From positions 2,537,001 through 2,601,000 of the forward strand of contig NZ_CP022336.1 in the NCBI RefSeq assembly GCF_002218195.1: DNA of 64,000 bases. Direction: 5' to 3'. This DNA is from Sphingorhabdus sp. SMR4y. GTDB lineage: Bacteria > Pseudomonadota > Alphaproteobacteria > Sphingomonadales > Sphingomonadaceae. Under the pieces are notes generated by a model. That model was given only the letters and a program-made list of their open reading frames with translations. It ran no database searches and was not told where the DNA came from. Below, in pieces: positions 51,961-63,946 of the stretch (position 1 is the first letter of the stretch; each line of letters begins with the position of its first letter). Both the position numbers and the translations under genes were made by a program.

Positions 51961-52047
51961 GCCCAGATGGCGGAATTGGTAGACGCGCATGCTTCAGGTG
52001 CATGTATTCGCAAGGATGTGGAGGTTCGAGTCCTCTTCTGGGCACCA
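51961..52047 (+). tRNA. tRNA-Leu (anticodon CAG)
   Basis: Acceptor stem GCCCAGA with TCTGGGC, discriminator A and encoded CCA. D-loop GGCGGAATTGGTAGACGCG, anticodon stem-loop CATGC-TTCAGGT-GCATG reading CAG, long variable arm and GGTTCGAGTCC T-arm fit class II leucine tRNA, 87 nt. Integrase remnants follow, so it may have been an integration target. Confidence 0.97.
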
Positions 52048-52645: not shown

Positions 52646-53278
52646 ATGACGTATTCACAATATGATCCTGCGGCCCAAAGCCGCGTGCCTTGGAACTTTG
52701 GTGCCAAGATCTGACCCAAGCGCCCGTTCAATCAGAAACAGATTTGGGCGATCCGGTTCTTTCTTGATCGCGAAAAGCGCGTTCGAGATCGAGCACTCTT
52801 TGATCTTGCAATCGATAGCAAGCTGAGAGGATGTGATCTCGTCGAGCTGAAAATCGGCGACCTGGTGAGCGGCCCTGATATTCGGAGGCGTGCAGCGATC
52901 ACCCTGCGCAAGACGGGGAGGCCGGTTCAGTTTGAAATTGCATCAGACGGCCGAGACAGTTTGTTCGCGTGGCTCGAACTGCGAGGTGGCTCTATTGAGA
53001 ACTATGTTTTCCCCAGTCGGATCGATCATTCGCGCCATCTCAGCACGCGCCAATATGCCCGGCTAGTTGATGAGGGGGTGGAAGCAATAGGTCTGCGACC
53101 AGAGGAATATGATACCCACTCGCTTCGAAGAACCAAGGCGTCGATCATCTACAAGGCGACGGGCAATATCCGTGCAATCCAGATTTTGCTGGGCCATTCG
53201 AAGATCGAGAACACCGTCCGATACCTCGGCGTCGACATTGAGGATGCCCTTACCTTGGCGGAGAAGACTGAAATCTGA
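52646..53278 (+). pseudogene. Small tyrosine recombinase/integrase with in-frame TGA
   Basis: From the ATG at 52646, with AAGGAGA 7 nt upstream, 22 codons (including RVPWNFGAKI) run to a TGA at 52712-52714. The same frame then continues for 187 codons from PKRPFNQKQIWAIRFFLD to EDALTLAEKTEI. Catalytic Arg (SKLRGCDLV), H-x-x-R (HSLRRTK), GH (LLGHS) and Tyr (VRYLG) are all there. One G-to-T change (GGA to TGA) explains the break. Short ~200-aa recombinases of this kind are frequent in sphingomonads. Confidence 0.8.
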
Positions 53279-53504: not shown

Positions 53505-54086
53505 TTGCGTATCGCTGTTATTGATGAAAACCCCGTTCGCGCGGCAATAATAGAAGACGGGCTTGCCGAAGTGGGCGAGCGCGATGTTTTTGTGATTTCG
53601 GAGCGTTCGGGAATGGCGCGCGCGATTGAAGCGATTGACCCCGATGTCATTCTGATCGACCTGGGCAATCCATCCCGCGATATGCTGGAGGAATATTTTG
53701 CTGTCAGTCGCGCGGTTTCGCGACCGATCGCCATGTTTGTCGAGCAATCGGATGAAGAGACGATTGCCGCAGCGATTGATGCAGGGGTTTCTGCCTATAT
53801 TGTCGATGGACTTTCACAGCGCCGGATGAAACCGATTCTTGATTTGGCGGTCAGGCGGTTTCAGGCCTTCTCACGGCTGCAAAGCGAATTGAAAGAGGCA
53901 CGCGATGCGCTGTCCGATCGCACGATAATTGACAATGCCAAAAGGCTTCTGATCCAGAAGCGCAAGATAAGCGAACCGGAAGCCCACAAACTGCTGCGCA
54001 ATCATGCCATGAACAGCAACAAACGCATGGCGGAAGTCGCAGAGGCTATCGTCACGGCCGAGAAACTATTGGGAGGCGGGCTGTGA
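53505..54086 (+). CDS. nasT: ANTAR-domain antiterminator NasT
   Basis: 193 aa with TTG start at 53505 and GGAG 7 nt upstream. Receiver-like domain (1-120) has D7, E8 and D52 but D101 where a phospho-receiver has its conserved Lys (AYIVDG). ANTAR RNA-binding helices occupy about 130-189 (AKRLLIQKRKISEPEAHKLLRNHAM). NasT binds a leader RNA and prevents termination. NasS holds it inactive without nitrate. The GTGA overlap with nasS couples their translation. Confidence 0.92.
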   Translation: MRIAVIDENPVRAAIIEDGLAEVGERDVFVISERSGMARAIEAIDPDVILIDLGNPSRDMLEEYFAVSRAVSRPIAMFVEQSDEETIAAAIDAGVSAYIVDGLSQRRMKPILDLAVRRFQAFSRLQSELKEARDALSDRTIIDNAKRLLIQKRKISEPEAHKLLRNHAMNSNKRMAEVAEAIVTAEKLLGGGL

Positions 54087-55300
54087 GCATCGATCAAATG
54101 AATATCGGGTTTCTGCCACTGGTCGATGCGGCGTTGCCGATTTTGGCCCGGGAACACGGCTTTGCCGAAGAACAGGGACTGCAACTCAATCTCATTCGGG
54201 ACGTCAGCTGGGCTTCGGTGCTGGACAGGCTGCTCTATGGCCACACCGATGCAGCGCATTTGCTCGCGCCGCTTGCGATCGCGACCACGCTGGGCCGCGG
54301 CCGTCCGGCAAAGGCTCTGGCTGTTCCGTTTGTCCTGGGCCTGAACGGCAACGCAATTACCATGTCCCATGCTCTGGCCGACAAGGTCGCGCCCGTCGGC
54401 AGGCTCGGCGATCCGGTGTCGGTCGGAGAGAAGCTGAAGGCCGAGATCACTGCTCGCGCGGGGACAGGAAAACGCCTTCGATTCGGTGTTGTTCACCGTT
54501 ATTCCGGCCACAGTTACAAGCTGCGATACTGGCTGGCACAATGCGGTATCGCGCCTGACACCGATGTCGATATCGTGACAATCGCACCGCCGTTCGCTGC
54601 TGACGCACTGGCCAATGCCGAGGTGGACGGAATTTGTGTGGGCGAACCGTGGAATAGCGTTGCCGTGGAACGCGGCGTCGGCCGGATCGTACTGGTTACG
54701 GCGCAAATCTGGCGGCGCGGGGTTGAAAAGGTGCTTGCCATGCCTGCCGGGAAGCTTGACGATCATCGCGACAAGATTGAACGCCTGGTTCGGGCGTTGC
54801 ATTTGGCAGCCAAGCATTTTGTCGATCCGGAAAATTGGGATGCCAACGCCGAAATATTGGCCCGCAAGGACTATCTGGATGGTTCGGCAAAGCTGATAAA
54901 CCGGGCTATTTCAGACCGTATCATGCTCACCGCCGGCGCGCCGCCGACGGATGTTCCGGATTTCATGTTCCAGTATCGGGAGGCGGCGAACTTCCCTTGG
55001 AAAAGCCAGGCGGCGTGGCTCTATTCCCAAATGCTGCGATGGGATCATCTTCCCTATGATGCGAAGGATCAACTGCGCGCCGAACAGGTTTTTCGGCCCA
55101 ATGTCTATCGCTCGGCGCTGCAGGGACTCGACACTCCGATGCCCGGTGCCAATGCCAAATTGGAAGGCAGCGTGACCGGAAGCTTGCCGGTCGGTTCGAC
55201 TCAGGGGCGGTTGACGCTGGGGGCCAATCCGTTTTTCGATGGCCGTGTCTTTGATCCAATGGAAGTTGAAGACTATCTGGAATCATTGCCTAATTCCTAG
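54083..55300 (+). CDS. nasS: Nitrate sensor NasS (NrtA/CmpA-like cytoplasmic protein)
   Basis: 405 aa with GTG start overlapping the nasT stop. It is a nitrate-binding-type solute-binding protein (NIGFLPLVDAALPILAREHG, HRYSGHSYKLRYWLAQCGI, GICVGEPWN). No signal peptide or lipobox, so cytoplasmic. NasS sequesters NasT and releases it on nitrate or nitrite binding. Related in fold to the transporter protein NrtA at 55555. Confidence 0.93.
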   Translation: MSIDQMNIGFLPLVDAALPILAREHGFAEEQGLQLNLIRDVSWASVLDRLLYGHTDAAHLLAPLAIATTLGRGRPAKALAVPFVLGLNGNAITMSHALADKVAPVGRLGDPVSVGEKLKAEITARAGTGKRLRFGVVHRYSGHSYKLRYWLAQCGIAPDTDVDIVTIAPPFAADALANAEVDGICVGEPWNSVAVERGVGRIVLVTAQIWRRGVEKVLAMPAGKLDDHRDKIERLVRALHLAAKHFVDPENWDANAEILARKDYLDGSAKLINRAISDRIMLTAGAPPTDVPDFMFQYREAANFPWKSQAAWLYSQMLRWDHLPYDAKDQLRAEQVFRPNVYRSALQGLDTPMPGANAKLEGSVTGSLPVGSTQGRLTLGANPFFDGRVFDPMEVEDYLESLPNS

Positions 55301-55321
55301 ATTTTGCTGCAACGCAATATT

Positions 55322-55355
55322 TTGACTTGCCTTTTTCAGCCCGCTGATGTTATTT
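55322..55355 (+). promoter_or_regulatory. Candidate promoter of the nrt-nir-nas leader
   Basis: TTGACT at 55322-55327 and TGTTAT at 55348-55353 (20-bp spacing), or TTGCCT at 55327-55332 with TTATTT at 55350-55355 (17 bp). Either would start transcription just upstream of the leader hairpins. Spacing is imperfect and both are weak calls. Confidence 0.3.
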
Positions 55356-55393
55356 GATTCGGGTCGGGGAAATCCTCGGCATCATATTTACCG

Positions 55394-55434
55394 GTTTGTC
55401 CAATGGCGGGCAAGCGCATGGTAGAACGATCTAC
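55394..55434 (+). promoter_or_regulatory. Two-hairpin ANTAR (NasT) target in leader RNA
   Basis: Hairpin 1 (55394-55415) has an 8-bp stem GTTTGTCC/GGGCAAGC with two G-U pairs and hexaloop AATGGC. Hairpin 2 (55421-55434) has stem GTAG/CTAC and hexaloop AACGAT. Both loops have A at position 1 and G at position 4, as in ANTAR-bound leaders, separated by 5 nt. An intrinsic terminator follows 20 nt later. Confidence 0.8.
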
Positions 55435-55453
55435 AATCGAATAGGCAATGTCG

Positions 55454-55498
55454 CCGCCCAAGCCAGTCTGAAGGACTGCTGCTTGAGGCGGTTTTTTT
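55454..55498 (+). terminator. Leader terminator upstream of nrtA
   Basis: CCGCC-CAAGC-CAGTC pairs with GACTG-CT-GCTTG-A-GGCGG (three 5-bp blocks with small bulges, loop TGAAG) and seven T follow at 55492-55498. It stands 57 bp before the nrtA ATG, so transcripts must read through it to reach the nitrate genes. Confidence 0.9.
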
Positions 55499-55554
55499 GT
55501 GTGTTTTTTTCGTTCCACCCTTGCGTTGCCCGACAATGAAAAAGGGATTGAGCA

Positions 55555-56967
55555 ATGAAATCGAACCGCCGCAATTTTCTTCTCATGGCTGTCTGCGCAG
55601 TGTCATTGACCGCATGCGGAAGCGAAGGTGACAGTTCGTCAAATAGCGGCAAGTCAGTGAAGCCTTCAACCATAGACGGTGCGATTGAAAAGCCGTCCCT
55701 GAAACTCGGCTTCATCAAGCTCACCGATATGGCGCCGCTGGCTATCGCCAAGGAGAAGGGCTTTTTCGCCGAAGAAGGGCTGAACGTTACTCTTGAACCG
55801 CAAGCGAACTGGAAGGTGCTGCTTGACGGTGTGATCGGCGGGCAGCTTGACGGCGCGCATATGCTGGCCGGGCAGCCACTGGCGGCAACGATCGGCTACG
55901 GGACAAAAGCGGATTTGATCGCCCCGCTCTCGCTCGACCTCAATGGCAATGCGATCACCCTGTCAAACAAGGTCTGGGCCCAGATCGAGCCGGGGCTGAA
56001 GAAAAATGCCGACGGGAAGCCGCAGCATCCGATCAGCGCTTCTGTCCTGAAGCCGGTCATCGCGAGCTACAAGGAGCAGGGAAAGCAGTTCAAAATGGGA
56101 ATGGTCTTCCCGGTTTCCACGCATAATTACGAATTGCGCTACTGGCTTGCAGCGGGCGGGATCGAGCCGGGCTATTATACAGCGGGAGACGTGGCCGGAA
56201 CAGTCGGCGCGGAGGCGGCCTTGTCCGTGACGCCGCCACCGCAAATGCCGGCAACGATGGAGGCGGGCACGATTGATGGCTATTGCGTCGGCGAACCCTG
56301 GAACCAGGCAGCGGTACAGAAGAAGATCGGCGTACCGGTCATTACCGATGATGAAATCTGGAAAAAGAACCCCGAGAAAGTCCTCGGACTGCGCGAGGAC
56401 TTCGCAGAAAAATATCCTGCAACCACCGCCGCCATATTGCGCGCAATAATCAAGGCACAGCAATGGCTGGATGTGGATGGCGGCAAGAACCGTGCAGAAG
56501 CGGTGAAGATTCTGGCGCGCCCCAACTATGTCGGAGCGGACGAAGCCGTGATCGGCGCTTCAATGACCGGTCAGTTTACGTTTCAGCCTGGCGACACGAG
56601 GCCGGCACCCGACTTCAATATCTTCTTCAACGACTATGCCGGCTACCCCTTCTACTCCGACGCGATCTGGTATCTCACCCAGATGCGGCGTTGGGGACAG
56701 ATTGCTGAAGACCAGACGGATCAATGGTATTTTGACACCGCGAAAGCGGTCTATCGACCGGACCTGTATCTCGCGGCGGCCAGAAAGCTGGCAGATGAAG
56801 GCGTGATTCCCGCCGACAGCATACCGGAAACCGACGGTTTCAAGGACCAGCAATCAGGCTTCATCGATAACATCGTCTACGACGGCAAGTCGCCCAATGC
56901 CTATCTCGCCAAATTTCCCATCGGATTGAAGGCCGGTCAGAAAGTGACCGCTGCCGGCGTTAACTAA
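55555..56967 (+). CDS. nrtA: Nitrate ABC transporter substrate-binding lipoprotein NrtA
   Basis: 470 aa. RRNFLL at residues 5-10 is a twin-Arg-like start and LTAC places the lipidated Cys at C21. The periplasmic domain (GFIKLTDMAPLAIAKEKGFF, RYWLAAGGIEPG, DGYCVGEPWNQAAV) is NrtA/CmpA-type. It delivers nitrate to NrtB/NrtCD. AAGGG 9 nt before the ATG. It follows the NasT leader. Confidence 0.93.
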   Translation: MKSNRRNFLLMAVCAVSLTACGSEGDSSSNSGKSVKPSTIDGAIEKPSLKLGFIKLTDMAPLAIAKEKGFFAEEGLNVTLEPQANWKVLLDGVIGGQLDGAHMLAGQPLAATIGYGTKADLIAPLSLDLNGNAITLSNKVWAQIEPGLKKNADGKPQHPISASVLKPVIASYKEQGKQFKMGMVFPVSTHNYELRYWLAAGGIEPGYYTAGDVAGTVGAEAALSVTPPPQMPATMEAGTIDGYCVGEPWNQAAVQKKIGVPVITDDEIWKKNPEKVLGLREDFAEKYPATTAAILRAIIKAQQWLDVDGGKNRAEAVKILARPNYVGADEAVIGASMTGQFTFQPGDTRPAPDFNIFFNDYAGYPFYSDAIWYLTQMRRWGQIAEDQTDQWYFDTAKAVYRPDLYLAAARKLADEGVIPADSIPETDGFKDQQSGFIDNIVYDGKSPNAYLAKFPIGLKAGQKVTAAGVN

Positions 56968-56995
56968 GCTGCTGATGAACAAAGGAAACAAAGAC

Positions 56996-58063
56996 ATGGC
57001 TACCGTCATTGCAGATAAGGTCCATAGCGATAATGGCGGGAATTCTCCTGCAAAAGGGGCAGTTGGCAGTATCGATGCTGCCGTTGATCCGGTTGCTACG
57101 GCAAAGCGGTCCCTCAAGGCTGCAAAAAGCTGGCCGCTTGACCCGAAGAAAATCCTGGTTTGGCTGAAAGGCCTCGCGGCTCCGACAATAGGGATATTGG
57201 CCTTTCTCGCCTTGTGGGCTGCGCTCGCACCCCAGGTGGATACATCGCTCGGCAGCCTTCCAGGGCCGGTTGAAGTCTCCGCTCAAGGCGTTGCGCTTTT
57301 TGACGAATGGTCCGCTGCGCAAGATCAGAAAGCGGAATTTTATGCGGCTCAGGATGCCCGCAATGAAGCTGCAATCGCCAGCGGCAGCGCCACCCGGAAT
57401 TTTGAATATAGTGGTCCCCCGACATTTCTCGACCAGATATGGACTTCTCTGGCGACGGTTGCGCTCGGGTTTTTTCTGGCCACCATCATTGCTGTGCCGC
57501 TCGGCCTGATCTGCGGTCTGTCAAAGACGTTCAACGCCGCGATCAATCCGATCGTGCAGATAATGAAGCCGGTCAGCCCGCTCGCCTGGCTCCCCATTGT
57601 GACGATGGTGATTTCGGCAACGATGACCGATCCCGATCCGAGCCTGCCAAAGAGCTTCGTGATTTCCGCAATTGTCGTGATGCTTTGCTCGCTCTGGTCG
57701 ACGCTGATCAATACGGCGATAGGCGCAGCGTCGATCGACAAGGATTTGCTCAATGTCGGCAAGGTGCTTCGCCTCGGCTGGTTCGCCAAGCTGACCCGTC
57801 TGGTGCTGCCCTCGGCGCTCCCCTATATTTTTACCGGCATGCGTCTGTCCCTGGGGGTGGGCTGGATGGTTCTGATCGCCGCGGAAATGCTCGCGCAAAA
57901 TCCAGGACTCGGAAAATTTGTCTGGGATGAGTTCCAGAATGGCTCGAGTCAGTCATTGGCCCGAATAATGTTCGCCGTAATCGTGATCGGTCTGATCGGC
58001 TTCCTGCTCGACCGGATCATGATGCTGCTACAAAATTTCGCCAGTCGCAATCGTACGGTTTGA
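56996..58063 (+). CDS. nrtB: Nitrate ABC transporter permease NrtB
   Basis: 355 aa from the ATG at 56996, preceded by AAAGGAAAC; an in-frame ATG at 56975 lacks a site. After a cytoplasmic N-terminal part and a first TM (about 48-66), a charged stretch of about 60 residues precedes the BPD-transp-1 domain (TSLATVALGFFLATIIAVPLGL, then EAA-loop ADLLNVGKVLRLG type). Located 28 bp after nrtA and 10 bp before nrtCD. Confidence 0.9.
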   Translation: MATVIADKVHSDNGGNSPAKGAVGSIDAAVDPVATAKRSLKAAKSWPLDPKKILVWLKGLAAPTIGILAFLALWAALAPQVDTSLGSLPGPVEVSAQGVALFDEWSAAQDQKAEFYAAQDARNEAAIASGSATRNFEYSGPPTFLDQIWTSLATVALGFFLATIIAVPLGLICGLSKTFNAAINPIVQIMKPVSPLAWLPIVTMVISATMTDPDPSLPKSFVISAIVVMLCSLWSTLINTAIGAASIDKDLLNVGKVLRLGWFAKLTRLVLPSALPYIFTGMRLSLGVGWMVLIAAEMLAQNPGLGKFVWDEFQNGSSQSLARIMFAVIVIGLIGFLLDRIMMLLQNFASRNRTV

Positions 58064-58073
58064 GGGGAAAACC

Positions 58074-59801
58074 ATGACCAATCCTCTACCCGTCCTGTCT
58101 TTGAAAAACGTCAGCAAATCCTTTGTCGACGGATCGGGAACGCAAACCGATGTGCTCGACAAAATCAACCTCGATGTCGCCGACGGCGAATTTATCGCCA
58201 TTCTCGGTTTTTCCGGCGCCGGCAAGACCACATTGATAAACTGCATTGCCGGTCTGACCGAAGCCAATGAAGGTGAAGTGCTGGTCAAAGGCGAGCCTTG
58301 TAAAGGCCCGAGCAAGGATCGCGGCCTCGTCTTCCAAAGCTATTCGCTTTTCCCGTGGTTGAGCGTTCAGGCCAATGTCGCATTGGCTGTAGATGCCGTT
58401 CATCAGGATAAATCAAAGGAAGAACGCGCGGCGCTGGTAAAGCAGAAGATCGAACTGGTAGGGCTGGACCATGCCATGGACCGCAAGCCGGCTCAGCTAT
58501 CGGGAGGCATGCGGCAGCGCGTCGCGGTCGCCCGGGCACTGGCGATGGAACCTGAAATCTTGCTGATGGACGAACCCTTGTCGGCGCTCGATGCACTGAC
58601 CCGGGCGAAATTGCAGGACGAGATCGAGCGCATCCGCAAACATGAGAAACGGACCATCGTTCTGGTCACAAATGATGTCGATGAAGCTTTGCTGCTTGCC
58701 GACCGGGTCGCAATATTGACCCCCGCCCCTTCGGCAACCATTGGCAAGATATTCGATGTAAAAATAGATCGCCCCCGGGAACGCGAAGCGATGAACGACG
58801 ATGCGGCGTATAAAACGCTTCGCAACACGATTGTCGGTTATCTTGATATATTGAGCCACGATCAGAAAGCCATTGCATCGGATTTCGCCAACCTGCCGGA
58901 TATCAAGCCCCTCGACCTTTCAGGCGCGCAAGAAGTCGAGAGAACGAACTTGCCGCAGGCCTATCTCGACGCGGCACAAAGTCCGATCACGACCCGCTAT
59001 CTCGAATTTTTCAAACTGAAGAAAATCTATCCAACGCCCAAAGGCCCGCTCACGGTTGTCGAGGACGTAAATCTCCTTATGGACAAGGGCGAATTTATTT
59101 CCCTGATCGGCCACTCGGGTTGTGGCAAATCCACGGTGCTCACCATGGCCGCCGGACTGAACGAGATCAGCGACGGCGGGATCATTCTGGATGGCCGCGA
59201 AATTGATGTCGCCGGCCCCGACAAGGCTGTGGTGTTCCAGGCGCCTTCGCTGATGCCCTGGCTGACAGCCAGGCAGAATGTCGCGCTCGGAGTGGAGAGG
59301 GTTTATCCACATACGTCGCGGTCGGAACGCAAGGATATCATAGAATATTATCTCGATCGTGTCGGTCTCGGTGATGCTATGGATAAGATGGCCGCGGATA
59401 TGTCGAACGGCATGCGGCAGCGGGTCGGCATCGCCCGCGCCTTTGCCCTGTCACCCAAATTACTATTGCTCGACGAGCCGTTTGGCATGCTGGACAGCCT
59501 GACCCGCTGGGATCTTCAGGACGTCCTGATCGAGGTCTGGAACCGCACGAAAGTAACGGCCATCATGGTCACTCATGACGTGGACGAGGCGATATTGCTC
59601 GCCGACCGCGTGGTGATGATGACCAATGGCCCGCAGGCCACCATCGGCAAGATACTCGATGTCGATCTGCCGCGACCCCGCGACCGCAAAGCGCTGCTCG
59701 AACATCCGAAATTCTATGCCTACCGGCAGGAAGTCCTGCAGTTCCTCGCCGAATATGAACATGGAAATCCGAACAAGAGCGCGCAGCAAGAAGCGGCCTG
59801 A
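58074..59801 (+). CDS. Fused nitrate ABC transporter ATP-binding protein (NrtCD type)
   Basis: 575 aa containing two ABC ATPase domains. NBD1 (residues 7-215): Walker A GFSGAGKT at 45-52, signature LSGGM at 142-146, Walker B to E167, but Asn200 at the H-loop (VTNDVDEAL). NBD2 (about 310-535): Walker A GHSGCGKS at 346-353, signature MSNGM at 443-447, H501. It would serve as both ATPase subunits with NrtB. It lies between nrtB and the porin. Confidence 0.88.
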   Translation: MTNPLPVLSLKNVSKSFVDGSGTQTDVLDKINLDVADGEFIAILGFSGAGKTTLINCIAGLTEANEGEVLVKGEPCKGPSKDRGLVFQSYSLFPWLSVQANVALAVDAVHQDKSKEERAALVKQKIELVGLDHAMDRKPAQLSGGMRQRVAVARALAMEPEILLMDEPLSALDALTRAKLQDEIERIRKHEKRTIVLVTNDVDEALLLADRVAILTPAPSATIGKIFDVKIDRPREREAMNDDAAYKTLRNTIVGYLDILSHDQKAIASDFANLPDIKPLDLSGAQEVERTNLPQAYLDAAQSPITTRYLEFFKLKKIYPTPKGPLTVVEDVNLLMDKGEFISLIGHSGCGKSTVLTMAAGLNEISDGGIILDGREIDVAGPDKAVVFQAPSLMPWLTARQNVALGVERVYPHTSRSERKDIIEYYLDRVGLGDAMDKMAADMSNGMRQRVGIARAFALSPKLLLLDEPFGMLDSLTRWDLQDVLIEVWNRTKVTAIMVTHDVDEAILLADRVVMMTNGPQATIGKILDVDLPRPRDRKALLEHPKFYAYRQEVLQFLAEYEHGNPNKSAQQEAA

Positions 59802-59848
59802 ACAGAGAGGATGCCCGGCAAGAGAGTAGCTCTTAAACGGGGAAGAAA

Positions 59849-61081
59849 ATGAAAAAAAGAAATATAATTTCATATGCAGCATTGGCGGGAGCCGCACTGG
59901 CGACACCTTCCTTTGCGCAGGCCAAGACGGGCGATCCGGTCATCATTGCCGAAGGCTTGACACTGGACCCGATATTCGACGCTCGGCTCGCCTATGAGCA
60001 TGTTGACCAGCCGCTATCGAGTGCGGACTCCCTGACAATGCGGACACGGGCCGGACTGGAATTGGCCAGTGATATCGGGCTGTCCTTTCTGGTTGAAAGT
60101 GAAGCGACGCTGGGAATCATCAACGACTATAACGACACCAATATTGGCAACGGCGTCGAACCGTATTCCGTCGTGGCCGACCCTGAAAATATCGAACTGA
60201 ACCGCATTCAACTGCAGTTCGCCAAAAAGGACAAGGGTAGCCTTACCGTAGGGCGCCAGAGGATTAATATTGACGACCAGCGTTTTGTCGGCAGCGTAGG
60301 CTGGCGGCAGAATGAGCAGACATTTGATGCTGTCAGTGGATCTCTGACAGCATTGAAGCCACTGACGCTGGAAGCCACTTACGCGATTTCCCAGCGGACC
60401 ATTTTCGGTGCGGATGCCGGTGTGCGTGAAGACTTTGACGGGGATTTTATCTTTCTGGGCGCAGGCGCAAAACTTGGTCCGCTCAATCTGAAAAGCTTTG
60501 CCTATTTGCTCGACTTTGACGCAGGTCAGCCGGTTTCCCTGAGTTCCAGCGCCACTTATGGTTTGCGTGCAACGGCAAAGCTTCCGGTCGCCGAGGGTTT
60601 TGCGTTGGACCTGGCCGGCAGCTATGCCGTGCAGAAGGACTATAAAGCCAACCCCGCCGACTACTCCGTCGACTATATCGCCGGTTCTGTTGGCACGTCC
60701 TATTCCGGTTTCAGCTTGAAGCTGGGGTATGAACGGCTGGGCAGCGATGGCGCGGGCAACCGTTTCCAGACCCCGCTTGCGACGCTGCACAAGTTCAACG
60801 GTTGGGCCGACGTCTTTCTCAGCACACCACCGGCGGGTCTGGAAGACAAATATGTCAGCGTGGCCAAGAAGTTCAATCTGCTCGGCGGCGTCACCGCGAG
60901 CGCAGCCTATCATGATTTTAGCAGCGATGCGGGAAGTATCGACTACGGCACGGAATTTGATGCAGCGCTCAATTTCAAGATCAACGTTGTCAGCGTCGGC
61001 CTGAAATACGCCAATTACAATGCGGACGGCTTTGCCGTCGATACCGAGAAATTCTGGCTGCGGCTGGGATATCGTTTCTAA
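59849..61081 (+). CDS. Outer-membrane porin-like protein (alginate export family type)
   Basis: 410 aa. Signal peptide (about 1-25, cleavage after PSFAQA). The rest is beta-strand-rich with alternating hydrophobic residues and ends in WLRLGYRF with a C-terminal Phe, standard for outer-membrane barrels. Its place between the nitrate transporter and nirB suggests it admits nitrate or nitrite through the outer membrane. Substrate is inferred. Confidence 0.75.
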   Translation: MKKRNIISYAALAGAALATPSFAQAKTGDPVIIAEGLTLDPIFDARLAYEHVDQPLSSADSLTMRTRAGLELASDIGLSFLVESEATLGIINDYNDTNIGNGVEPYSVVADPENIELNRIQLQFAKKDKGSLTVGRQRINIDDQRFVGSVGWRQNEQTFDAVSGSLTALKPLTLEATYAISQRTIFGADAGVREDFDGDFIFLGAGAKLGPLNLKSFAYLLDFDAGQPVSLSSSATYGLRATAKLPVAEGFALDLAGSYAVQKDYKANPADYSVDYIAGSVGTSYSGFSLKLGYERLGSDGAGNRFQTPLATLHKFNGWADVFLSTPPAGLEDKYVSVAKKFNLLGGVTASAAYHDFSSDAGSIDYGTEFDAALNFKINVVSVGLKYANYNADGFAVDTEKFWLRLGYRF

Positions 61082-61097
61082 CAACTGGAATTTGTCA

Positions 61098-63605
61098 ATG
61101 AACGCACCGGTTACTTTGAAAGACAAGCAGGGACATGCTTCCCCTGATGAGCGCGAACGGCTTGTCGTCATCGGCAATGGCATGGCAGGCTGCCGCGCAG
61201 TGGAGGAAATTCTCGCCCGCGACGCGGACCGCTACGCCATCACCATTTTCGGTGCGGAACCGCGGGTCAACTATGACCGGATCATGCTGTCCCCGGTTCT
61301 GGCAGGCGACAAGAGCTTTGAAGAAATCATCATCAATGATCAAAGCTGGTATGATGATAATGGTATAGAACTGGTCAGCGGCGATGCGATCATCGCGATC
61401 AAGCGCGACGCGAAGGAGGTGGTCAGTGCCTCGGGCCGGGTGACCCCTTATGATCGTCTGCTGATCGCGACGGGATCCGATCCGTTCATCATTCCGGTGC
61501 CGGGCCACAAGCTGCCGGGAGTTATCACCTTTCGCGATCTGGACGATGTCGACAAGATGCTGACGGCGGCAGAAGCTGGCGGCCATGCCGTCGTGATCGG
61601 GGGCGGCCTGCTGGGACTGGAAGCGGCGCACGGCCTCTCCCTGCGCGGGATGCAGGTCACCGTATTGCATCTGATGCCGACGCTGATGGAGCGGCAACTG
61701 GATGAAGCGGCAGGTTTCCTGTTGCGCAACGAACTCGAACGGCGCGGTCAAACCATCATTACCCAGGCCGATACCGCCGAGATAACCGGGAATAGCCATG
61801 TCACCGGGGTGAAACTTAAGGACGGTACCGAAATCAGCGCAGATCTTGTCGTCATGGCGGTCGGGATCAAGCCATCAGTCAATCTCGCCAAACAGGCGGA
61901 ACTGGAAGTCGAGCGCGGCATCGTCGTCGATGACGATATGGTAACCAGCGATCCGGCGATACTGGCGGTCGGAGAATGCGTTCAGCATCGCGGCGCCTGC
62001 TACGGACTGGTGGCGCCGCTCTGGGAAATGTGCCGCGCCCTGGCAGATTTCATGACCAGCACTCCTAGCGGATATGCCGGTTCGGTCACCGCGACCAAGC
62101 TGAAGGTCTCCGGAATCGATCTATTCTCGGCCGGTGATTTTTCCGGCGGCGACGACGCCGAAGACATAGTCATGCGTGACGCTTCCCGCGGGATTTACAA
62201 ACGGGTGGTGGTGAAGGGAGACAAGCTGATTGGAGCCGTTCTGTACGGAGATACGGCAGATGGCAGCTGGTATTTCGATCTTCTGAAACGCGAGGAAGAC
62301 ATATCGGATATTCGCGAAGCGCTGATTTTCGGTCAGGCTTTTGCTTCGGGAGGGGCCACGCTGGACCCTGACAGCGCCGTTGCAGCATTGTCCCCCGACG
62401 CAGAAATCTGCGGCTGCAACGGCGTTACCAAGGGACAGGTGGTCGCATGCATCGATGCTGGTGCCAATGACCTCGACAGCGTTCGCGCCAGTTGCAAGGC
62501 ATCCGCCAGCTGCGGTTCCTGCACCGGCCTGGTTGAAGGCCTGCTGAGTATCTCGCTGGGCGAAGACTATGGAGGCGCCCGAACGGTCACGCCGATGTGC
62601 CAATGCACCAGCTTCACCCACGAAGATGTCCGGCGCAACATTCTCGAAAAAGAGCTGAAATCCATTCCGCAGGTGATGCAGGAGCTGCACTGGACGACGC
62701 CGGACGGCTGCGCTTCCTGCCGTCCTGCACTCAACTATTATCTGCTGTGCGCCTGGCCCACGGAGCATGAGGAAGACCCGCAAAGCCGGTTTGTCAACGA
62801 ACGGATGCATGCCAATATCCAGAAAGACGGCACCTACTCGGTGGTTCCCAGAATGTGGGGCGGGATAACCACGCCGAACGAGCTGCGGGCGATTGCCGAC
62901 GCGGCCGACAAATATGAAGCGCGGCTGGTGAAGGTCACCGGCGGCCAGCGGCTCGATATTTTCGGCATCAAGAAAGAAGATTTACCGGCGATCTGGGCGG
63001 ATCTCAACGCCGCTGGCATGGTGTCCGGCCATGCTTATGGCAAGGCGCTGCGCACGGTGAAAACCTGCGTCGGCAGCGAATGGTGCCGCTTTGGCACGCA
63101 GGATTCAACAGGTCTGGGCATCAAGGCCGAACAGATGACCTGGGGCAGCTGGATGCCGCATAAATTCAAGATCGCCGTATCGGGCTGTCCGCGCAATTGT
63201 GCGGAGGCATCAATCAAGGACCTCGGCATAATCTGTGTCGACAGCGGCTATGAACTGAGCGTTGGCGGCAATGGCGGGATTCACCTGCGTGGCACCGATT
63301 TCCTGTGCAAGGTCGAGACCGAAGAGGCTGCGCTGGAATATATCGCGGCCTTCATCCAGCTCTACCGCGAAGAAGCGCGCTATCTCGACCGGACGGCACC
63401 CTGGGTGGAGAGGGTCGGCATGGACTATATCAAGGGTCGTATCGTGGAAGACGAGGCAGGTCGCAAGGAATTGCAGAAACGATTTCTGTTCGCCCAGTCG
63501 GTGCATCAGAAGGATCCCTGGGCGGAACGTGTCGGGGGCGCGGAAAGCCACTTGCACAAGCATATTGCTGAAATCCGGCCCTTTACTGTGCTGGAGCCGG
63601 CATGA
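61098..63605 (+). CDS. nirB: Nitrite reductase (NADH) large subunit
   Basis: 835 aa from the ATG at 61098. FAD/NAD domains (VVIGNGMAGCRAVEE; VVIGGGLLGLEAAHGL), then [2Fe-2S] BFD-type Cys (from C438, CGCNG; CGSC). The siroheme/[4Fe-4S] Cys C657, C663, C697 and C701 (C-x5-C, C-x3-C) are intact. Cytoplasmic six-electron reduction of nitrite to ammonium. The nirD ATG overlaps its stop. Confidence 0.96.
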   Translation: MNAPVTLKDKQGHASPDERERLVVIGNGMAGCRAVEEILARDADRYAITIFGAEPRVNYDRIMLSPVLAGDKSFEEIIINDQSWYDDNGIELVSGDAIIAIKRDAKEVVSASGRVTPYDRLLIATGSDPFIIPVPGHKLPGVITFRDLDDVDKMLTAAEAGGHAVVIGGGLLGLEAAHGLSLRGMQVTVLHLMPTLMERQLDEAAGFLLRNELERRGQTIITQADTAEITGNSHVTGVKLKDGTEISADLVVMAVGIKPSVNLAKQAELEVERGIVVDDDMVTSDPAILAVGECVQHRGACYGLVAPLWEMCRALADFMTSTPSGYAGSVTATKLKVSGIDLFSAGDFSGGDDAEDIVMRDASRGIYKRVVVKGDKLIGAVLYGDTADGSWYFDLLKREEDISDIREALIFGQAFASGGATLDPDSAVAALSPDAEICGCNGVTKGQVVACIDAGANDLDSVRASCKASASCGSCTGLVEGLLSISLGEDYGGARTVTPMCQCTSFTHEDVRRNILEKELKSIPQVMQELHWTTPDGCASCRPALNYYLLCAWPTEHEEDPQSRFVNERMHANIQKDGTYSVVPRMWGGITTPNELRAIADAADKYEARLVKVTGGQRLDIFGIKKEDLPAIWADLNAAGMVSGHAYGKALRTVKTCVGSEWCRFGTQDSTGLGIKAEQMTWGSWMPHKFKIAVSGCPRNCAEASIKDLGIICVDSGYELSVGGNGGIHLRGTDFLCKVETEEAALEYIAAFIQLYREEARYLDRTAPWVERVGMDYIKGRIVEDEAGRKELQKRFLFAQSVHQKDPWAERVGGAESHLHKHIAEIRPFTVLEPA

Positions 63606-63946
63606 TGGTGGATGCAAAATGGATCGATATCGGACCGGTCGAGCAATTGCCTGCGCTCGGCGCGCGAACCCTGCCGGTACAAGGTGGTCAGGAGATTGTA
63701 ATATTCCGCACTGCCACCGGCGGCATATATGCACTCGCCAACAAATGCCCGCACAAGGGCGGGCCGCTGAGCCAGGGCATGGTTCACGACACGAGTGTTA
63801 CCTGCCCCTTGCACAACTGGCGCATTTCCCTGCTGACAGGCGAGGCGTTGGGTGAAGACAAGGGATGCGTTCCGGTCATTCCGGTAAAAATTGACGCCGG
63901 GCGGATTTACATCGACCGAACAGCCGCTTTGGCCGGGGCCGTGTGA
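63602..63946 (+). CDS. nirD: Nitrite reductase (NADH) small subunit
   Basis: 114 aa, ATGA overlap with nirB. Rieske-type fold with the full ligand set C49-P-H51 and C68-x2-H71 (CPHKGGPL; CPLHNW). Accessory subunit of NirB. The next gene starts with a GTG overlapping its stop (GTGTGA). Confidence 0.93.
   Translation: MMVDAKWIDIGPVEQLPALGARTLPVQGGQEIVIFRTATGGIYALANKCPHKGGPLSQGMVHDTSVTCPLHNWRISLLTGEALGEDKGCVPVIPVKIDAGRIYIDRTAALAGAV

What the first reader, a model, noticed from the sequence alone, without database searches (positions are those of the whole stretch)
55301..55554. NasT-type antitermination leader before the nitrate operon
Upstream of nrtA, two consecutive hairpins each present a six-base loop with A at 1 and G at 4 (AATGGC, AACGAT), 5 nt apart. 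20 nt later a strong terminator with T7 blocks the operon. nasT (ANTAR RNA binder) and nasS sit immediately upstream. This reconstructs a complete nitrate-responsive RNA switch: NasS releases NasT, which binds the hairpins and disrupts termination. The terminator is close enough for NasT binding to affect it. I did not find an obvious alternative antiterminator pairing.
Basis: partly seen in the sequence, partly recalled or inferred. Interest (0 to 1): 0.8.

Follow-up and report, generated by a model that had tools for sequence, protein, structure and literature searches.

The report
Nitrate-operon RNA switch, long-spaced hairpins

Summary
The leader is real and looks like a NasT (ANTAR-type) antitermination leader of a Sphingorhabdus-like sphingomonad. 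P1 (loop AATGGC), terminator, nasT and nasS are confirmed. The conserved second hairpin was missed: GGC-AATGTC-GCC, 55444-55455, loop A1/G4, whose 3' arm begins the terminator. So the 'missing' antiterminator pairing exists and excludes the full terminator, as in Enterococcus eut and Klebsiella nasF leaders. Such loops overlap the terminator in 81 of 87 family leaders, P1 covaries, and a covariance model hits strongly in exactly the 9 of 32 genus genomes carrying NasS, once in this genome, and in 80 of 80 named NasS loci. The unexpected part is spacing: the P1-P2 linker is 28 nt here, median 32 nt in the family, against 1-12 nt in 15 of 17 other alphaproteobacterial leaders. In print, a 20-nt extension abolishes EutV antitermination. 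NasT length is unchanged. A long-linker variant of a known kind; binding and antitermination are untested.

The parts
53505..54086 (+). nasT: ANTAR-domain antiterminator (193 aa, response-regulator-like N-terminus)
   Evidence: Pfam ANTAR 9.1e-18, above cut-off; Response_reg match below its cut-off; PDB relatives 6wsh response regulator, 1s8n putative antiterminator, 4akk nitrate regulatory protein, 1qo0 AmiR
54083..55300 (+). nasS: NMT1-like, probable nitrate/nitrite sensor; start overlaps the nasT stop
   Evidence: Pfam NMT1_2 2e-61; no obvious signal peptide by eye
55304..55317 (+). TTGCTGC-N3-GCAA inverted repeat upstream of the likely promoter
   Evidence: strict pattern found in 48 of 91 family leaders; function unknown
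55327..55356 (+). putative promoter TTGCCT...TATTTG
   Evidence: inspection and genus alignment; inferred
55387..55425 (+). P1 outer stem UUUACC (55387-55392) / GGUAGA (55420-55425)
   Evidence: RNAalifold on genus, 87.5% of cells paired, nearly invariant; MFE
55394..55415 (+). P1, first ANTAR hexaloop hairpin, loop AATGGC 55402-55407
   Evidence: covariation; A1/G4 enrichment
   Evidence: 4 of 8 distinct genus leaders; per-pair counts
55427..55439 (+). small linker hairpin CGAT-CTACA-ATCG
   Evidence: 81% of cells paired in genus, no covariation; in MFE of nascent leader
55444..55455 (+). P2, conserved second ANTAR hairpin / antiterminator, loop AATGTC 55447-55452
   Evidence: 3' arm 55453-55455 is the start of the terminator 5' arm
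55453..55498 (+). intrinsic terminator hairpin plus T7
55555..56967 (+). nrtA-like nitrate-binding protein, first gene of the controlled operon
   Evidence: Pfam NMT1_2 2.2e-95; lipobox-like start by eye
56975..63946 (+). permease, double ABC ATPase, porin-like protein, NirB, NirD; nitrate reductase-like and CobA-like genes follow outside the window
   Evidence: the last two named by inspection of translations

Best explanation
The leader is a NasT-responsive attenuator. RNA polymerase starts in the nasS-nrtA gap (inferred). As the leader emerges, P1 folds, then the small P2 hairpin GGC-AATGTC-GCC can fold before the terminator's 3' arm exists (predicted). Without nitrate, NasS holds NasT; when the 3' arm appears, the far stronger terminator takes the GCC of P2 and transcription stops. 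With nitrate or nitrite, NasS lets go of NasT (shown in Paracoccus, inferred here); NasT binds the A1/G4 hexaloops, holds P2, so shortens the terminator stem by its first three pairs next to the T run, and the nrt-nir-nas operon is read through. The linker between P1 and P2 is about 30 nt in this family, so either its own folding (P1 outer stem, small linker hairpin) brings the loops together, or this NasT tolerates or uses a wide spacing. Shown here: anatomy, conservation, covariation of P1, co-occurrence with NasS/NasT. Inferred: promoter, binding, readthrough, nitrate response.
For: P1 and the terminator appear in unconstrained RNAalifold folds of both alignments. P1+P2 cells with two-sided changes: 91 vs 39.4 in shuffles, covariation score 0.337 vs 0.137, on 52 leaders selected for an A1/G4 P1, and 159 vs 71.6 on 81 distinct model matches (fitted to the model). 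In a scan that fixed only loop size and overlap with the terminator 5' arm, 81 of 87 leaders with a detected terminator have a hexaloop with A1/G4 (recounted). The P2 5' arm and loop lie outside the terminator, yet GG and A1, G4 are invariant in 52 of 52 rows. Covariance model R1: own genome one strong hit, E 1.5e-8, next 2.4; genus, E<1e-4 in 9 of 9 genomes with NasS and 0 of 23 without, best there 0.077 (8 genus leaders are among the 45 training rows); 80 of 80 named loci, downstream of nasS, of which 79 were also scanned for P2 and 57 of those do not share a tested 60-base stretch with the 96 leaders. P2 is in the MFE of transcripts ending 55460, 55470, 55480 and 55486 and lost at 55492. 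Passages read: PMC3795266 (NasT released by nitrate, binds the nasA leader), PMC3369931, PMC8934654; main text of PMC3369936 read in its first part.
Against: No expression or binding data for this organism. P2 is only 3 bp here, not more stable than shuffles (z -1.3, 25 of 200 as good), absent from the MFE of the transcript ending at 55456, and its core pairs almost never vary, so covariation does not prove its stem. The 28-nt linker breaks the spacing found to matter for EutV. Within the genus alone pair changes do not exceed shuffles. The MFE of the whole 254-nt leader prefers a long-range pairing of the P1 region with bases after the terminator. The outer-pair count around P1 does not exceed control (10.0 vs 10.7). 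5 of 96 family leaders gave no P2; 23 of 82 best upstream hexaloops lack A1+G4.
Confidence: 0.87

Rival explanations
1. The reader's hairpin (AACGAT loop) works as a third or substitute NasT site: it lies 9 nt before the conserved P2, the usual ANTAR spacing, so in this species it, not P1, could act together with P2.
For: A1/G4 hexaloop, 4 bp, linker 9 nt to P2 in G000, G012, G016, G003. A third A1/G4 hairpin, though placed upstream of P1, is seen in 12 of 91 family leaders.
Against: Stem lost in 4 of 8 distinct genus leaders, which still have nasS and the P1-P2 pair; its 5' arm competes with the P1 outer stem; alone it folds with a 4-base loop.
Confidence: 0.08
2. P1 alone is the NasT site and the conserved P2 letters merely serve terminator or polymerase contacts.
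For: In Paracoccus, mutation of hairpin HI severely reduced expression with nitrate while mutation of HII had little effect and raised the ammonium level two-fold (PMC5424462, passages); P2 stem lacks covariation support.
Against: P2 5' arm and loop lie outside the terminator and are conserved with A1/G4; a like element recurs in other alphaproteobacterial families with other terminator sequences (that scan required A1/G4 in P2).
Confidence: 0.08
3. An ordinary constitutive terminator or attenuator between nasS and nrtA, with hairpins unrelated to NasT.
For: Strong terminator alone; no Rfam family other than a tRNA reaches its gathering score in the window.
Against: Strong model hits track NasS presence exactly in the 32 genus genomes; A1/G4 enrichment and covariation.
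Confidence: 0.04

Closest known systems
Enterococcus faecalis eut leaders bound by EutV (Ramesh 2012 PMC3369931; Walters 2022 PMC8934654; passages read)
   Same: Two hexaloop hairpins with A1/G4; P2 overlaps the terminator stem; ANTAR protein with receiver-type N-terminus.
   Different: Linker 5-12 nt in eut, and 14 nt or a 20-nt extension impairs or abolishes activity; here 28 nt, with the linker predicted to fold. Signal is nitrate through a partner protein, not phosphorylation (inferred).
Klebsiella oxytoca nasF leader bound by NasR (PMC3369936, first part read)
   Same: Nitrate assimilation operon, P1 and P2 with A1/G4, P2 distal arm in the terminator stem.
   Different: Sensor and ANTAR domain are one protein there; here NasS and NasT are separate.
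Paracoccus denitrificans NasS-NasT / nasA leader (PMC3795266, PMC5424462; passages read)
   Same: nasT-nasS directly upstream of the assimilation operon; a leader hairpin needed; NasT binds the leader RNA.
   Different: Loop motifs were not spelled out in the passages I read; hairpins are given as 137 and 91 bp before nasA.
Bradyrhizobium diazoefficiens NasT targets (PMC6759348, PMC4724949; passages read)
   Same: NasT acts on leaders of nitrogen genes, hairpins predicted in some.
   Different: Several scattered targets; here one strong site in the genome.

Membership tests
ANTAR-target RNA (dual hexaloop leader) | P1 hairpin with six-base loop, A at 1 and G at 4 | tested here: met
   AATGGC at 55402-55407
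ANTAR-target RNA (dual hexaloop leader) | P2 hairpin with six-base loop, A at 1 and G at 4 | tested here: met
   AATGTC at 55447-55452, stem of 3 bp (the minimum used by Ramesh 2012)
ANTAR-target RNA (dual hexaloop leader) | P2 3' arm overlaps the terminator 5' arm | tested here: met
   55453-55455 belong to both
ANTAR-target RNA (dual hexaloop leader) | Linker of 5-12 nt (eut, PMC3369931) or 2-25 nt (actinobacterial curation, PMC8164766) | tested here: not met
   28 nt from inner P1 stem to P2; 67 of 74 measured family leaders above 25 nt, 89 examined. A published range, not shown to define the family; hence filed as a variant
ANTAR-target RNA (dual hexaloop leader) | ANTAR protein encoded in the genome | tested here: met
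   one ANTAR match in this genome, inside nasT
ANTAR-target RNA (dual hexaloop leader) | Bound by the ANTAR protein and relieves termination | not testable with these tools
   needs experiment
NasS-NasT two-component nitrate regulator | nasT with ANTAR domain and nasS of the NMT1/NrtA type, adjacent | tested here: met
NasS-NasT two-component nitrate regulator | Nitrate-dependent release of NasT by NasS | not testable with these tools
   shown in Paracoccus (PMC3795266, passages)
Rfam-described RNA family | Match at or above a gathering score | tested here: not met
   only a tRNA in the window; best lower match in 55250-55600 is isrK, 11.2 bits vs 50

The most novel reading that the evidence does not exclude
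Sphingomonadaceae NasT leaders are a distinct ANTAR architecture in which P1 and P2 are mostly 26-42 nt apart and the linker itself folds (P1 outer stem or bridging hairpin) to set the geometry, or in which NasT is recruited at P1 and passed on to P2 over a distance that EutV cannot bridge; the protein has not lengthened to compensate.
Probability: 0.4. Interest if true: 0.6.

Novelty: new variant of a known kind. Interest (0 to 1): 0.45.

Why it matters
How an ANTAR dimer uses two hexaloops is still debated (simultaneous binding in PMC3369936, contact with each loop in turn in PMC8934654), and spacing is an important experimental argument. A bacterial family that keeps both loops and the same protein length but lengthens the spacing several-fold is a natural test of that argument.

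Tried and rejected
Rfam scans gave nothing usable. The P2-plus-terminator pattern with one mismatch is useless genome-wide (91 forward and 78 reverse matches); replaced by model R1.

The idea that the P1 outer stem is a family-wide feature: the number of outer pairs is not above control (10.0 vs 10.7), though the fold is more stable than the control mean in 48 of 59 leaders, and with only the linker shuffled mean z is -1.09, below 0 in 48 of 59. Kept as suggestive only. The unpaired fraction of the linker is barely lower than control (0.48 vs 0.51).

Automatic long spacings outside the family (35-48 nt loop to loop) were partly wrong picks: G718, G524, G451 and G653 have a nearer hexaloop hairpin with G at 1 and G at 4; G513 and G694 have none at a linker up to 15 nt. 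G467 was dropped from the 18 of 35 regions with a P2 call because its candidate has no P1 and does not resemble the others. The Fisher p-value ignores relatedness and is not used as evidence.

NasT coiled-coil lengthening as compensation: rejected, NasT is 190-193 aa in long- and short-linker genomes (of 36 rows, 6 picked NasS by mistake and were ignored, and one was cut at 185). The upstream repeat TTGCTGC-N3-GCAA was sought genome-wide (11 sites); no common gene theme by eye.

Full report
What was claimed.

Genes. nasT (53505-54086) carries an ANTAR domain, nasS (54083-55300) and the ORF at 55555-56967 are NMT1/NrtA-type proteins, followed by permease, ABC ATPase, porin-like protein, NirB and NirD. 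Beyond the window a molybdopterin-type nitrate reductase and a CobA-like methyltransferase follow, named by inspection of translations only. NasT holds the only ANTAR match in this 3.48-Mb genome. The named record with the contig length of genus genome G003 is Sphingorhabdus sp. 109, so the window is from a Sphingorhabdus-like member of Sphingomonadaceae.

Relatives. NasS was found in 9 of 32 genus genomes, and 129 of 397 family genomes had a match to the protein. I took the stretch downstream of nasS from 96 genomes of these two searches (9 genus, 87 others). The genus alignment (8 distinct leaders) and a 52-leader alignment (selected from 59 with an A1/G4 P1) were used for pair counts.

The conserved second hairpin. 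A script that fixed only loop size, at least 3 bp and overlap with the terminator's 5' arm found a terminator in 87 of 96 leaders, a hexaloop hairpin there in 82, and A1 with G4 in 81 (recounted). In the other six a different terminator arm had been picked; the later pattern, which requires the letters, finds P2 in those six too and in 91 of 96 overall. In the window it is GGC-AATGTC-GCC at 55444-55455. Its 5' arm and loop are not part of the terminator, yet GG, A1 and G4 are invariant in 52 of 52 rows and C and A2 nearly so. Its last three bases open the terminator stem, so P2 and the full terminator cannot coexist. With P2 forced, a terminator stem shortened next to the T run remains, 4.2 kcal/mol less stable overall (-41.0 vs -45.2).

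P1. Choosing the best six-base-loop hairpin 20-60 nt upstream of P2 without regard to letters gives A1+G4 in 59 of 82 (89 distinct leaders examined), against 210 of 2804 in dinucleotide shuffles; loops of 5, 7 and 8 bases give 6 of 53, 7 of 52 and 1 of 78. RNAalifold finds P1 and the terminator unaided. P1 plus P2 cells with two-sided changes: 91 against 39.4 shuffled, and every slid version is lower. On 81 distinct matches collected by the model the figures are 159 against 71.6 (that alignment is fitted to the model). Almost all of this is P1; P2 core pairs hardly vary. Within the genus alone, changes are too few to test.

It keeps four pairs in 4 of 8 distinct genus leaders (per-pair counts). 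Its 5' arm is better explained as part of the 3' arm of a P1 outer stem, 87.5% of cells paired in the genus but almost invariant.

Model search. R1 (45 leaders, P1 and P2 only) scores 54.3 bits in the window, one strong hit in the genome at E 1.5e-8 with the next at 2.4, and E below 1e-4 in 9 of 32 genus genomes, the same 9 that carry NasS, with nothing better than 0.077 in the other 23. Of 80 named loci from another collection (the best 80 of 320 relatives), 80 have a forward hit downstream of nasS. A letter-based script found P2 with a terminator in 79 of 80 (not L202); 57 of the 79 do not share a tested 60-base stretch with the 96 leaders, and among these 57, 51 have an upstream hexaloop hairpin, 39 of them with A1+G4.

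Order of folding. MFE folds of growing transcripts have P1, a small linker hairpin and P2 for ends 55460, 55470, 55480 and 55486; P2 is not formed at 55456 and is gone at 55492 when the terminator 3' arm is nearly complete. This is a prediction of stability, not a kinetic measurement. The whole 254-nt leader instead prefers a long-range pairing around the terminator.

Spacing. NasS-type matches were found in 74 of 289 class genomes, drawn evenly; of these I took 35 downstream regions. The family's best such hairpin lies at a median of 32 nt, 67 of 74 above 25 nt, 15 of 89 unmeasured. In the window it is 28 nt. A few family members are short or intermediate (G068 9 nt, G140 15, G118 17). eut leaders have 5-12 nt and lose function when the linker is lengthened (PMC3369931, PMC8934654, passages), and an actinobacterial curation used 2-25 nt (PMC8164766, passages). 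NasT length is 190-193 aa in both groups.

Literature. Five searches listed 20, 20, 20, 20 and 6 of the papers found; I saw none on NasT leaders of sphingomonads or on long-linker ANTAR leaders among those titles and abstract starts. A Sphingobium genome paper names a NasT gene without regulation in the passages I saw (PMC9281055). Only open-licence papers are covered, and the 2012 supplementary tables of predicted sites could not be read here, so some of these leaders may be listed there.

Conclusion. The finding is very probably a genuine NasT leader, known in kind, with the second hairpin corrected and a long linker, common in the family, as the new element.

Noticed in passing
window 55304-55317 and about half of the family leaders, 106-145 nt upstream of P2: A conserved inverted repeat TGCTGC-N3-GCAA(AAA) just upstream of the likely promoter, strict pattern in 48 of 91 leaders; possibly a regulator's DNA site. 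It resembles the recalled PhaR motif CTGC-N3/4-GCAG, which no call tested.
   Followed up: partly
window 55396-55429 with 55510-55543: Imperfect 34-nt inverted repeat (71%) enclosing the terminator, preferred by the full-leader MFE; the GAACGA/TCGTTC core is invariant in the 7 genus leaders aligned but absent in G019.
   Followed up: partly
G137, G405, G200, G396, G168, G423, G365, G268, G122, G281, G064, G019: A third A1/G4 hexaloop hairpin 70-90 nt upstream of P2 in 12 of 91 leaders, and a G1/G4 one in 4 more, giving triple-hexaloop leaders.
   Followed up: partly
window 51961-52044 and 52865-53278: A tRNA gene followed by an ORF that looks by eye like the C-terminal part of a tyrosine recombinase, just before nasT; with NasS in only 9 of 32 genus genomes this suggests the nas cluster sits in an island.
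   Followed up: no
window 59849-61081: A porin-like protein (weak Pfam Alginate_exp match) inside the nitrate operon, possibly an outer-membrane nitrate channel.
   Followed up: no
G072 (L097), downstream of nasS: Two A1/G4 hairpins but no terminator or P2 found by the scripts: possibly a degraded or differently working leader.
   Followed up: no
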